From Myxococcota bacterium (GTDB lineage Bacteria; Myxococcota; XYA12-FULL-58-9; JALHOP01), in the NCBI GenBank assembly GCA_022842935.1, contig JALHOP010000001.1:496001-560000 (forward strand): a stretch of 64,000 nucleotides of DNA. The letters are read 5' to 3'. The notes beneath the pieces are model-generated. The model was not told where the DNA came from. It searched no databases and saw only the letters and a list, made by a program, of their open reading frames with translations. Of this stretch, positions 32,725-39,101 are shown in pieces. Position numbers and translations under genes: made by a program. Positions within the stretch are counted from its first letter, which is position 1. The number at the start of each line of letters is the position of its first letter.

Positions 32725-32754
32725 TTGACAAATCGCAAGCCGGATTGCTAGGAG
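32725..32754 (+). promoter_or_regulatory. promoter of the rimP-nusA-rnpM-infB operon
   Basis: A consensus TTGACA (32725-32730) is followed after 18 nt by TAGGAG (32749-32754), preceded by an extended -10 TGC. Transcription would start near 32761 and reach the leader terminator about 50 nt later. This is the best -35 box I saw in the window. It lies in the divergent gap with the nucleoside transporter. Confidence 0.55.
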
Positions 32755-32760
32755 GCGCGT

Positions 32761-32833
32761 GACGTTTGGTTGCTGTCCCTAGGCTTAACGGCCGGGCAGC
32801 TAGGCTGGATGGGCTCTCGACGAGCCCTTTTTT
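32761..32833 (+). ncRNA. rimP operon leader RNA / candidate attenuator
   Basis: About 73 nt from the predicted start to a terminator. An upstream stem pairs GCTGTCC (32772-32778) with GGGCAGC (32794-32800, one G-U). The hexamer TAGGCT occurs twice (32780-32785, 32801-32806), giving alternative pairings before the terminator stem. A rimP-leader attenuator is known in other proteobacteria, and NusA, encoded here, stimulates termination. Feedback attenuation is therefore plausible but is my inference. The RNA could also be a stand-alone small RNA. Confidence 0.5.
32811..32833 (+). terminator. Rho-independent terminator ahead of rimP
   Basis: GGGCTC (32811-32816) and GAGCCC (32822-32827) form a perfect 6-bp stem with a 5-nt loop, followed immediately by six T residues. 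Its orientation stops + strand transcription, though the only upstream + strand DNA is the short rimP leader. It sits 45 nt before the rimP ATG, so it must be read through or relieved for the operon to be expressed. Confidence 0.75.
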
Positions 32834-32877
32834 GTTTCTAGTTTCGCCGCTTTTTCGAAGGGCGGCCGGGTGCCTTT

Positions 32878-33369
32878 ATGAGCGAAAGTCTCGTGCAAGC
32901 CATCGAACGGGCGATTCTGCCCGTCCTTGCGCGCGACGGCTACGAGCTCGTCCTTACCGAGTACGTCGCGCGAGCGAAGGTCTTGCGGCTGTACATCGAT
33001 AAAGAGGTGGGCGCGGAGGTCAACGCCGATGGCTCGAGCGGTATCTCGCTCGAGGACTGTCAGCGGGTGTCGCGACTCGTCAGTGACGTCATGGACGCCG
33101 AAGGGCTGTCAGACGGTATCGACGGACGCTTCACGCTCGAGGTCTCGTCACCGGGGCTCGATCGCCCGCTGGTGAAGCCACGCGATTTCCAGCGCTTCGT
33201 TGGTCGCAAAGTTCAGCTTTCGACCCGCGAGATGCTAGAGGGGCGTCGCAAGTTTTCTGGCGCGCTCACCGCGGCCGACGAAGGCGCCATCAAGGTCGAT
33301 GTCGACGGCAAGCCGTGGACCATTGCTTACGACGTCATCGAGCGAGCGCGGCTCGTCCCAGAGTTCTGA
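32878..33369 (+). CDS. rimP: ribosome maturation factor RimP
   Basis: 163 residues. RimP pattern: AIERAILPVLARDGYELVLTEY, LRLYIDKE, SLEDCQRVSRLVSDVMDAEG, YTLEVSSPGLDRPL-like (FTLEVSSPGLDRPLVK), then the C-terminal SH3-like barrel. It acts in 30S subunit maturation. First gene of the nusA-infB operon. A GC hairpin (GCCGC/GCGGC around 32845-32862) lies over its ribosome-binding region. Confidence 0.95.
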   Translation: MSESLVQAIERAILPVLARDGYELVLTEYVARAKVLRLYIDKEVGAEVNADGSSGISLEDCQRVSRLVSDVMDAEGLSDGIDGRFTLEVSSPGLDRPLVKPRDFQRFVGRKVQLSTREMLEGRRKFSGALTAADEGAIKVDVDGKPWTIAYDVIERARLVPEF

Positions 33370-33456: not shown

Positions 33457-35187
<1,731 letters not shown>

Positions 35188-35258
35188 CTCAAACGTTGGA
35201 TGTTTGCCGTGCGGGCCCAACCATCAGCGGGCCCGCTCGGCGCGTCCTATGCGAATCG

Positions 35259-36005
35259 ATGAAGAAGAACGACAGATCCCATGGCCGCCGCGATGAGCGC
35301 GCGGGCGGCAAAGACGGCGGACGCCCTCCCCGTCAGGGCGGCTTCGCGCATCGCGGGCAGCGCCAGGATCCGCTAGAGGCGCGCCGCGCGCAGCAAAAGG
35401 CGGCGATCGAGCACGAGCCGCAGCGCACCTGCATCATCACGAAGAAACAGCTTCCGCCGGCCGAGTTATTGCGCCTCGCCTGGGCTGAAGGGCAAGTCAT
35501 TCCCGGCCCCAAAGGCGGCGGTCGGGGCGCCTACATCAAGATCGCCCGTGACGTCTTCGATCAGCTCGATGCCAAGGTTCTGAGTCGGGCGTTCCGTGAT
35601 CAGGTACGGGACTTCGATCGCGACCAATTCCTCAACGATCTTCATGCTATGGCGGAGCGCCGCGTGCTCGAGTCGGTGGGGCTCGCGCGCCGCATCGGTA
35701 TCTTGGTGACGGGCACTGACAACGTCCCTGGCAGTGCCCATGATGGCGTGCTGCTGATTGCGGACGATCTGGCGTCGCGGTCCCGCGCCAAGCTCGGTGT
35801 GACCCCTTTCATCAGTGGGGCTGCGCTCGGACAGGCGGCTGGAATGGGCTACGTCGGCGCGGCTTTCATTCCAGGGAAAACGCATCACATCACGAACGAG
35901 GCTGCCTATTGGCTCGCGGTGTGGTACGAGTCCGACCCCCGAGGGCCGGCCCGTTCGCGCGAACAGACAGGTAACGAGGGGCAGAACGAGGCATCGCATG
36001 AGTAA
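35259..36005 (+). CDS. YlxR/RnpM domain fused to an L7Ae-like RNA-binding domain
   Basis: 248 residues from the ATG at 35259. A basic leader (first ~55 residues, Arg/Gly-rich) precedes a YlxR/DUF448 domain (QRTCIITKKQLPPAELLRLA, GGGRGAYIK). A C-terminal L7Ae/L30e-like half follows (ESVGLARRIGILVTGTDNV, LGVTPFISGAALGQAAGM). In Bacillus the two are separate neighbouring genes (ylxR, ylxQ), and YlxR (RnpM) modulates RNase P. The stop codon TAA is overlapped by the start of the 25-codon frame at 35998. Confidence 0.85.
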   Translation: MKKNDRSHGRRDERAGGKDGGRPPRQGGFAHRGQRQDPLEARRAQQKAAIEHEPQRTCIITKKQLPPAELLRLAWAEGQVIPGPKGGGRGAYIKIARDVFDQLDAKVLSRAFRDQVRDFDRDQFLNDLHAMAERRVLESVGLARRIGILVTGTDNVPGSAHDGVLLIADDLASRSRAKLGVTPFISGAALGQAAGMGYVGAAFIPGKTHHITNEAAYWLAVWYESDPRGPARSREQTGNEGQNEASHE

Positions 36006-36075
36006 GAAGCGGGTTCACGATTTGGCAAACGAAGATGGCGGTTTGGCCCCCGCGCATGCCGAGGTGTCTCAATGA
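35998..36075 (+). CDS. 25-codon leader ORF copying the IF-2 N-terminus
   Basis: It reads MSKKRVHDLANEDGG and so on to a TGA after 25 codons. The first seven residues are identical to IF-2 ([14 protein letters not shown]). It has its own GAGG (35988-35991). Its ATG overlaps the rnpM stop by eight bases, and its TGA overlaps the infB ATG (ATGA). It may be a translation relay that couples rnpM to infB, or a relic of a local duplication that displaced the true start by 74 nt. Whether the peptide is made is unknown. Confidence 0.55.
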   Translation: MSKKRVHDLANEDGGLAPAHAEVSQ

Positions 36076-36094
36076 GTAAGAAGCGCGTTCACGA
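35998..36094 (+). repeat. imperfect tandem duplication of the infB start
   Basis: The 23 bases from ATG at 35998-36020 and at 36072-36094 differ at one position only. A GAGG motif lies six or seven bases before each ATG. The copies are 74 nt apart, which is not a multiple of three, so the upstream copy is out of frame with infB. Identity decays after the first 23 bases, though both copies still encode similar residues (D/E-L-A-N/K-E). Confidence 0.85.
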
Positions 36095-39000
36095 GCTCGC
36101 GAAAGAGTTTGGTTTGGAAAACCGGGAAGCTGTCCTTTTGCTGCAGCAGGGTGGGGTCGACGTAAAAACCCACTCGAGCTCGGTCTACGAAGACGAAGCA
36201 CGCGCCGTATTGATGAAAGCCAAAGGCAAACCGGCTCCAGCCGCGCCCGCTCCGGCGCCCGGCGCCGTAGCTCCGGCGGCAGCGCCAGCCTCGGCGAACG
36301 CGCCCAAGCGCGTCGGCATGATGATCGTCAAGAAGAAGTCATCCGACGAGGTCGGCGGCTCGACCGAAGCGCCAGCCAGCACGCCAGCCTCCGCGGAAGC
36401 TGACGAGCCGCGCGTCCAGCAAGCGGCACCCGTCGAGGAACGTCCTGTCGAGCACGAGCCTCCACCACAGGTCGAAGCGCGCGAAGAAGAAGAAATCGAA
36501 GCCCCCGACGAGCGACAGACCCGCGCGCCCGACCCGCGCCCAGCACCACCCCCAGTGGCTACCCAGCCGCGCGAAGCCGCTCCACGTTCGCCCTACGGCG
36601 GTCAGCCATCGCGGACCGGCGGCAGCCGCCCCGCGGCCTACCATCGCGATCCTACGCAAGACCGGCAGCGTCCGGGCGAACAGCAAGAAGCCACCGAGCC
36701 TACCGAGGCGCTGCAAGGCGAGGCTGCAGCCGCACCCGCAGGTCCGGGTGAAGCTGCTCCACCCGCGGCGCAGCAGCGCCCGGGTGCCGCACAAGTCGTT
36801 CGCATGATTGATCGCGACAAGCTCCTCGAGCGTATCCCGTCGCGTCGTCTCGGCGGCGGCCAGGGTGGCCCGCGCCCAGGTGGCTATGGTCCGCGACCCG
36901 GCGGCCCCGGTGGCCCGGGCGGTCAGCGTCCCGGCGGTCCCGGCGGTCCTGGTGGTCCCGGTGGGCAACGCTTTGGCGGAGTTACCGAGCTGCGTGTCGT
37001 CACCGATCCGTTCGGTCGTGGTCGCGAAATGGTCGACGTCAATCGCCGTCCCCCGATGGGTGGTGGCGGTGGTGCGCCGGGCGCGCGTCCCGGTGGCTTC
37101 GGTCCGCCACGCGGTCCCGCTGGTAGCGGTCCCGGTCAGAACAAGGGCCGCCCCCCGAGCAAGCGCCAAATGGTCGAGATGCGCGAGCGCGCCATGCACC
37201 CGGCGCGTCTCAAGAAGAAGAAGACCACCAGCCGCACCGGCAAGCAGACCGTGGTCACCCAGCCGAGCGCCGCAAAGCGCGTCGTCAAGATGGGCAAGAC
37301 CATCACCGTTGCCGAGCTTGCCTCTGAATTGAGCGTGAAGGCCACGGAGCTCATCAAGAAGCTGATGGGTCTCGGCATGATGATTACGCAGAATCAGCCG
37401 GTCGATTTCGACACCGCGACATTGCTCGCGGCGGATTACGAGTACACGGTCACGTCCGAGGCATTCGACGAGACCAAGATGCTCGACGCCGGCAAGCCCG
37501 AAGAGGCCGAGGAGACCGAGAACCTAAAGGCCCGTCCGCCGGTCGTGACCGTCATGGGCCACGTCGACCACGGCAAGACGTCGTTGCTCGACGCGATCCG
37601 CAAGGCGAAGGTCGCTGCGGGCGAAGCGGGTGGTATCACCCAGCACATCGGCGCCTATCAGGTGCCGGTGCCGGGCAAGGGCTTGGTCACCTTTCTCGAC
37701 ACGCCGGGCCACGCCGCCTTCACCCAGATGCGCGCGCGCGGTGCTCAGATCACCGACATCGTCGTTTTGGTCGTCGCGGCGGACGACGGCGTGATGCCGC
37801 AGACCGAAGAGGCCATCAAGCACGCGCAGGCGGCGGAAGTGCCGATCATCGTGGCGGTCAACAAGATCGACAAGCCCGAGGCACAGCCCGACCGCGTCAT
37901 GCAGGAGCTCTCGAAGTTCAGCCTGCTCTCGGAAGCCTGGGGTGGTGACACGATGTTTGTGAACACCTCGGCGACCAAGGGCACGGGTATCCCGGAGCTG
38001 CTCGAGGCCATCCTGTTGCAGGCCGAAGTGCTCGAGCTCAAAGCGAACCCAGACCGTCCGGCGATTGGCTCGGTGGTCGAGGCTCAGCTCGACAAGGGCC
38101 GCGGCGCCGTCTGCACCCTCCTCGTCGAGACCGGTACGCTCCGCCAAGGCGACGCTATCGTCGTCGGCGAGTACTCGGGTCGCGTTCGCGCCATGGTCAA
38201 CGACGAAGGCAAGTCCATCAAGGAAGCTGGACCCTCGACGCCAGTCGAGGTCATTGGTCTTGACGGTGTGCCGGACGCCGGCGACCAGCTCAACGTGGTC
38301 GAGGACGCCGACGCCGCTCGTGAGATCGCCGAGAACCGCAAGGCGACGCGCAAGGCCGACGAGCAGGTTGTCGAGCGCAAGATGTCGCTCGACGACATCA
38401 TGAAGCGCATGGCTGGCCAGGAGTCACTCGAGCTCAAAATCGTGCTCAAGGCCGACGTCCAGGGCTCCGCTGAAGCGGTCAAGGAAGCTTTGAACAAGCT
38501 CACGACCGCCGAGGTGAAGGTCAACGTGATCTACTCGGGCGTTGGCGGTATCTCGGAGTCGGACATCACGCTCGCGGCCGCCTCGACGGGCATCGTCGTG
38601 GGCTTCGGCGTGCGTCCCGATGCCAAGGCGCGCACCATTGCGGAGCGGGAAGGTGTCGAAATTCGCACCTACGCCATCATCTACGAGATGCTCGACGACG
38701 TGCGGAAGGCCATGGAAGGCCTCTTGCAGCCGGAGTCGCGCGAGAAGATCATCGGGCGCTGCGAAGTGCGCGAGATCTTCCGAGTCTCGAAGATCGGCAC
38801 CATCGCTGGTTGCCGCGTCGTGGACGGCAAGGCGCAACGTTCGGCCCGCATCCGTGTGCTTCGCGACAACGTCCAGGTGTTCGATGGCAAGGTCGCCTCG
38901 CTGCGTAGCTTCAAGAACGATGTTCGCGAAGTGGACGCCGGAGCGGAGTGCGGCGTGAGCCTCGAGGGCTACCAGGACGTCAAGCCTGGTGACGTGCTCG

Positions 39001-39101
39001 AGTTCTATCAGGTCGAAGAGGTGGCTCGCCGCCTCGATACCTCGCCGGCCGGCGGCGCACGTCGTGGGCCAGCGGCTAGCGAAAATCGCCCGCAAGCGTA
39101 G
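36072..39101 (+). CDS. infB: translation initiation factor IF-2
   Basis: 1009 residues. The IF2_N helix domain ([21 protein letters not shown]) is followed by a very long Ala/Pro/Glu-rich, then Gly/Pro/Arg-rich linker (~50-375, with GGPGGPGG repeats). A second IF2_N-like segment ([20 protein letters not shown]) and the GTPase domain with GHVDHGKT (~494), DTPGHAAF and NKID follow, then domains II-IV. It places initiator tRNA on the 30S subunit. The linker is longer than in E. coli. A cruciform-like structure follows the stop. Confidence 0.97.

What the first reader, a model, noticed from the sequence alone, without database searches (positions are those of the whole stretch)
32725..32877. Terminator-bearing leader ahead of rimP-nusA: possible NusA-controlled attenuation
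A consensus promoter is followed by a ~70-nt leader with a stem (32772-32800), a repeated TAGGCT hexamer that allows alternative pairing, and a perfect GC stem plus T-tract (32811-32833) only 45 nt before the rimP ATG. Only leader DNA lies upstream of this terminator on the + strand, so the operon must read through it. NusA, encoded in the operon, stimulates termination, giving a simple feedback loop. A rimP leader is known elsewhere; whether this is the same RNA class I cannot tell.
Basis: partly seen in the sequence, partly recalled or inferred. Interest (0 to 1): 0.75.

Follow-up and report, generated by a model that had tools for sequence, protein, structure and literature searches.

The report
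Self-limiting RNA switch before rimP-nusA
Ahead of an operon for ribosome and transcription factors lies a known type of built-in transcription stop signal; its relatives across the myxobacterial phylum carry a matching strand at the very start of the RNA that can hold the stop signal open, a co-evolved partner that an earlier survey of this leader reported as not visible.

Summary
A promoter, a folded leader of about 50 nt, and a GGGCTC-TCGAC-GAGCCC-T6 terminator (32811-32833) stand 44 nt before rimP, the first gene of rimP-nusA-ylxR-infB. This is the 'rimP-leader' attenuator of Naville & Gautheret 2010 (GGGc...gCCC plus T-tract), for which NusA feedback was proposed there and reported since in B. 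subtilis. It is not Rfam RF01770 (no match). The TAGGCT repeat is absent from same-order relatives.

What is new came from about 140 Myxococcota rimP upstream regions. The first nucleotides of the predicted transcript (typically CATTTTTCGA, 7-9 nt past the -10 in 35 of 40) pair with the 5' arm/flank of the terminator, ending on the first G of GGGC. The helix covaries: 96% of cells paired against 84% shuffled and 39-60% slid; 40 double-sided changes against 12.5. A one-leader-per-family permutation never reached it in 50,000. It forms in all 42 leader prefixes folded, before the terminator's 3' arm exists. So the leader looks like a two-state attenuator whose 5' end is the antiterminator strand. 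The window's copy is divergent: 9 pairs (5 G-U), overlapping its short terminator by one base. NusA control remains inferred.

The parts
32725..32754 (+). promoter: -35 TTGACA 32725-32730, extended -10 TGC-TAGGAG 32746-32754, predicted start about 32760-32763
   Evidence: the same register of -10 and 5' box in 35 of 40 leaders with a recognisable promoter (7-9 nt)
32763..32771 (+). 5' box CGTTTGGTT, 5' strand of helix P1 (proposed antiterminator strand), at the predicted RNA 5' end
   Evidence: homologous position to the CATTT... box of relatives
32772..32800 (+). inner hairpin P2 (GCTGTCC...GGGCAGC), variable in relatives
   Evidence: fold; length and sequence vary in alignment A1
32803..32811 (+). 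GGCTGGATG, 3' strand of helix P1; its last G is the first base of the terminator stem
32811..32833 (+). intrinsic terminator GGGCTC-TCGAC-GAGCCC + TTTTTT, the rimP-leader GGGc...gCCC motif
32878..33369 (+). rimP (ribosome maturation factor)
   Evidence: Pfam RimP_N and RimP C-terminal SH3
33457..35187 (+). nusA, proposed feedback regulator
   Evidence: Pfam NusA_N, S1, KH_5, HHH_5
35196..36005 (+). ylxR-like gene
   Evidence: Pfam YlxR
36072..39101 (+). infB
   Evidence: Pfam IF-2, IF2_N, GTP_EFTU

Best explanation
It is a transcription attenuator of the rimP-nusA-ylxR-infB operon, a Myxococcota variant of the rimP-leader. Transcription starts at about 32761. The first nucleotides of the RNA pair with the stretch just before the terminator (helix P1 enclosing P2) as soon as that stretch is made. 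When the 3' arm emerges, the terminator hairpin competes with P1 for the shared bases: in most relatives the (A)AAGTG part of its 5' arm, in the window only G32811. Formation of the full terminator releases a short RNA; persistence of P1 lets polymerase read into rimP. NusA, encoded second in the operon, most likely favours terminator folding and so limits its own synthesis. Shown here: anatomy, conservation, covariation of P1, predicted folding order. Inferred: that P1 antiterminates, that NusA (or NusG) tips the balance, and the start site.
For: Terminator motif and position match the published rimP-leader. P1 pairing: cognate score 1004 against permuted 780 +/- 23, 0 of 20,000, for 61 dereplicated leaders including the window; one leader per family 344 against 254 +/- 15, 0 of 50,000. 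Named-structure counts: 96.1% of cells paired, shuffles 83.6 +/- 1.1, slid registers 39-60%, 40 both-side changes against 12.5 +/- 3.2; the same picture in a reduced set without the window. All 42 prefixes ending at GGGC fold with P1; in the full leader the terminator form is lower by 2.8 kcal/mol on average, so the two states are near in energy. The 5' box lies 7-9 nt after the -10 in 35 of 40. Families without the CATTT box use other 5' sequences that still pair with the AGTGGGC arm (for example L014, L023, L042, L086). B. subtilis NusA autoregulates by NusA-stimulated termination in its leader; S. agalactiae has a short terminated rimP leader RNA.
Against: In the window P1 and the terminator exclude each other by one base pair only (-30.6 against -31.4 kcal/mol), so switching there may be weak. 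The window's 9-pair P1 alone would arise in 11% of shuffles, and a model built without it scores it only 12 bits and does not pick it out of the whole genome. Permutations deal with relatedness only in part; alignment A1 was chosen for leaders with the box and at least 6 pairs, though the tests were not. No RNA data and no NusA data exist for this lineage.
Confidence: 0.7

Rival explanations
1. Plain rimP-leader: NusA (or NusG) acts on the terminator hairpin alone and P1 has no switching role; P1 is a 5' stem that only stabilises the RNA or helps pausing.
For: In the 2010 survey no antiterminator was visible; in S. agalactiae termination comes 31 nt after the start, leaving little room for a P1; in the window P1 and terminator nearly coexist.
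Against: P1 ends on the first G of GGGC in every aligned relative and overlaps the terminator arm, with covariation; a mere 5' stem need not use the terminator's own arm.
Confidence: 0.2
2. The two arms are a DNA operator (inverted repeat) for a repressor at the start site.
For: Arms are near-palindromic in many relatives (CATTTTTCGA / TCGAAAAGTG) and one lies at the start site.
Against: Distance from the 5' box to the terminator varies from 22 to 63 nt; position 3 is a U-G pair in 37 of 42 and other G-U pairs are frequent, which pair in RNA and not in a DNA palindrome.
Confidence: 0.05
3. An insulating terminator with no regulatory role, against stray upstream transcription.
For: Compact terminator just upstream of an essential operon.
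Against: The only neighbour upstream is divergent and the conserved promoter lies upstream of the terminator in relatives too.
Confidence: 0.05

Closest known systems
rimP-leader attenuator (Naville & Gautheret 2010, PMC2965389)
   Same: Upstream of rimP-nusA-infB; short stem with GGGc...gCCC; T-tract; within 4-130 nt of the start codon; NusA proposed as regulator.
   Different: The paper saw no antiterminator for this terminator and its main text does not mention Myxococcus or Deltaproteobacteria; here a covarying 5'-end helix overlaps the terminator arm.
Rfam RF01770 rimP (gammaproteobacterial rimP leader)
   Same: A CCC...GGG hairpin followed by the GGGC...GCCC terminator; E. coli K-12 also has CAGTTAT complementary to ATAACTG in the same register, not part of the Rfam structure.
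   Different: No match by the Rfam model in the window or in 195 phylum genomes; no T-tract after P2, no metY tRNA upstream.
B. subtilis nusA leader (NusA-stimulated termination, reviewed in PMC12288461)
   Same: Terminator in the leader of the nusA operon, feedback by NusA.
   Different: Experimentally shown there, only inferred here; its leader sequence was not compared here.
S. agalactiae gbs0413-gbs0418 leader (PMC4448216)
   Same: Short terminated RNA and long transcript from one start, same operon.
   Different: Terminator ends 31 nt after the start, so no room for an enclosing P1-P2 hairpin.

Membership tests
rimP-leader (Naville & Gautheret 2010) | lies in the 5' UTR of a rimP-nusA-infB operon | tested here: met
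   Pfam hits of the genes; coordinates
rimP-leader (Naville & Gautheret 2010) | terminator stem with GGGc(...)gCCC followed by a T stretch | tested here: met
   GGGCTCTCGACGAGCCCTTTTTT; definition
rimP-leader (Naville & Gautheret 2010) | 4-130 nt from the gene start | tested here: met
   44 nt from the end of the T run
Rfam RF01770 | covariance-model score of at least 47 bits | tested here: not met
   no match in the window, nor at E up to 10 in 351 bases; 0 of 195 phylum genomes, E. coli control positive
Rfam RF01770 | upstream CCCG...CGGG hairpin followed by a U-tract | tested here: not met
   P2 of the window has CCC/GGG but no T-tract after it
Myxococcota P1 variant described here | RNA 5' end pairs with the terminator flank up to the first G of GGGC | tested here: met
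   window 32763-32771 with 32803-32811, 9 pairs; weak on its own
Myxococcota P1 variant described here | match to a covariance model of the relatives | tested here: inconclusive
   model without the window: 12 bits, E 0.62 in 64 kb, a different site scores higher in the whole genome; model that includes it: 20.4 bits
NusA-autoregulated attenuator | NusA stimulates termination at the leader terminator | not testable with these tools
   needs in vitro transcription or NusA depletion

The most novel reading that the evidence does not exclude
The antiterminator strand is the first dozen nucleotides of the transcript, so read-through into the nusA operon may be set by the exact 5' end (start-site choice, slippage at the T run, 5' processing), with NusA tipping the balance. 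The same register in E. coli (CAGTTAT:ATAACTG) hints that this P1 design is older than Myxococcota.
Probability: 0.25. Interest if true: 0.75.

Novelty: new variant of a known kind. Interest (0 to 1): 0.5.

Why it matters
The rimP-leader ranked first in the 2010 survey of genes controlled by attenuation, and that survey saw no antiterminator for it, so a protein was assumed to be the whole switch. A covarying antiterminator made from the RNA's own 5' end, found across a phylum, gives that proposal an explicit two-state structure that can be tested by compensatory mutation, and supplies covariance models that detect the leader where Rfam has none.

Tried and rejected
TAGGCT repeat as switch: not in the same-order relatives. 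Rfam membership: rejected by tests. RNAalifold on the alignment predicts the terminator only, as expected for two mutually exclusive helices, so P1 was tested as a named structure instead. The first duplex test, with GGGC included, was confounded by generic CCC-GGG pairing in GC-rich DNA, though still p = 0.00035; it was replaced by the flank-only test. An early pass read minus-strand loci in the wrong orientation and was redone. A gammaproteobacterial covariation test was not possible because the genome search accepts only genome handles of this phylum as centre. The genome-wide scan by NusA protein returned only two named relatives.

Full report
Observation. The window holds, on the + strand, TTGACA 32725-32730, an extended -10 TGC-TAGGAG ending at 32754, a leader, and the hairpin GGGCTC-TCGAC-GAGCCC at 32811-32827 followed by TTTTTTG, 44 nt before the ATG of rimP at 32878. 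The terminator scan finds exactly this site, but 1.8 such sites are expected by chance in 1.6 kb, and the leader folds only moderately better than shuffles (z -1.9), so sequence alone is not decisive. The operon is rimP, nusA, ylxR, infB by Pfam; the gene upstream is a divergent nucleoside transporter. The window most likely lies in a Myxococcota genome: two same-order relatives are, by name, a 'Deltaproteobacteria bacterium' MAG and a 'Myxococcota bacterium' MAG.

Known class. Naville & Gautheret 2010 describe the rimP-leader as the most ubiquitous attenuator in their survey: a short stem with GGGc...gCCC and a T stretch, 4-130 nt before rimP, with NusA as best candidate regulator and no visible antiterminator. 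The window meets each sequence criterion. In B. subtilis NusA autoregulates by stimulating termination in its leader (review PMC12288461); in S. agalactiae a short RNA ending 31 nt after the start was mapped (PMC4448216); E. coli has terminators t1 and t2 upstream of rimP (PMC6511841). The Rfam family RF01770 is gammaproteobacterial and does not match the window or any of 195 phylum genomes, while E. coli is found as control.

Comparison. RimP was found in 180 of 195 genomes of the phylum (first 97). About 140 upstream regions were fetched and turned to the coding strand. Most carry the terminator, commonly AAAGTGGGC...GCCC(A/G)CTTTT. Upstream of it, at a nearly fixed distance from the -10 (7-9 nt from its end in 35 of 40 with a recognisable promoter), stands CATTT followed by a variable stretch.

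The helix. The CATTT... box is complementary to the stretch that ends with the first G of the terminator's GGGC: CATTTTTCGA:TCGAAAAGTG, CATTTTCG:CGAAAGTG, CATTTAG:CTAAGTG (same order as the window), CATTCA:TGAGTG, CATTTGGT:GCTGAGTG, CATTTAGT:GTTAGATG, and CGTTTGGTT:GGCTGGATG in the window. For 61 dereplicated leaders, not selected for pairing, the summed contiguous helix score is 1004 against 780 +/- 23 when boxes and flanks are exchanged among leaders (0 of 20,000); with about one leader per family it is 344 against 254 +/- 15 (0 of 50,000), and 346 against 210 +/- 11 for shuffled upstream sequence. On alignment A1 (42 leaders) 96.1% of cells pair (shuffled 83.6 +/- 1.1; slid registers 39-60%), with 40 cells changed on both sides (12.5 +/- 3.2); a reduced set of 29 without the window gives the same picture. 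Relatedness inflates such counts; the slid controls and the family-level test guard against it only in part. A1 was restricted to leaders with the box and at least 6 pairs.

Competition. In most relatives helix P1 uses the A-tract and GTG of the terminator's 5' arm. Every one of 42 prefixes that end at GGGC folds with P1; in complete leaders the terminator form is on average 2.8 kcal/mol lower. So P1 should form first and be displaced as the terminator's 3' arm appears. The third pair of P1 is U-G in 37 of 42, which would ease displacement. Weak A-U and G-U pairs at the base of the stem mark terminators assisted by NusG, and distal U-tract interruptions those assisted by NusA or NusG, in B. 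subtilis (PMC8060035); many relatives have both features (for example CCCGCTTTTCGCGTTTT). Families without the CATTT box still pair other 5' sequences with the AGTGGGC arm (L014, L023, L042, L086).

The window itself. Its leader is a divergent instance. Its terminator has no A-tract arm, so the two structures conflict only at G32811 (-30.6 against -31.4 kcal/mol). The helix alone would be found in 11% of shuffles. A model of relatives without the window detects 146 of 195 genomes with one site each at E up to 0.01, and 59 of 89 fetched rimP regions (part of them are in the model), but scores the window at 12 bits and prefers another site in the whole genome. Assignment of the window's P1 therefore rests on register and position, not on a strong independent score. 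A few of the 146 sites are not beside the RimP match listed for that genome (for example G054 and G079) and I did not follow them all.

Outside the phylum. In E. coli K-12 CAGTTAT, upstream of the first terminator, is complementary to ATAACTG ending on the first G of GGGC, the same register; 3.2% of shuffles do as well, and the prefix folds that way. The Rfam structure line does not include it. This is a lead only.

Verdict. A known kind of attenuator, here with a covarying 5'-end antiterminator that I did not find described in the papers I could search (subscription literature is not covered). NusA control is a reasonable inference, not a result.

Noticed in passing
L094 (E. coli K-12), about 57 nt upstream of the GGGC terminator: CAGTTAT is complementary to ATAACTG in the same register as the Myxococcota P1; the RF01770 structure leaves it unpaired.
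   Followed up: partly
L024, L030, L066, L076, L077, L082, L084, L085, L093: rimP upstream regions of some families of the phylum show no such terminator in the scans; in some of them the RimP match or start may be wrong or the operon arranged differently.
   Followed up: no
G079:C10:25661-25731: Leader model hit (E 7e-10) on a different contig from the RimP match used for that genome, suggesting a second or the true rimP locus there.
   Followed up: no
window 32834-32890: The stretch between terminator and rimP ATG is GC-rich, has only a weak Shine-Dalgarno-like GAAGG, and can fold over the start region.
   Followed up: no
L009, 189 nt upstream of the RimP match: A second strong terminator (AACGGCGGGAAG...CTTCCCGCCGTT-T7) lies about 130 nt upstream of the rimP-leader terminator, just after what looks like the 3' end of a tRNA gene, recalling metY of E. 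coli.
   Followed up: no
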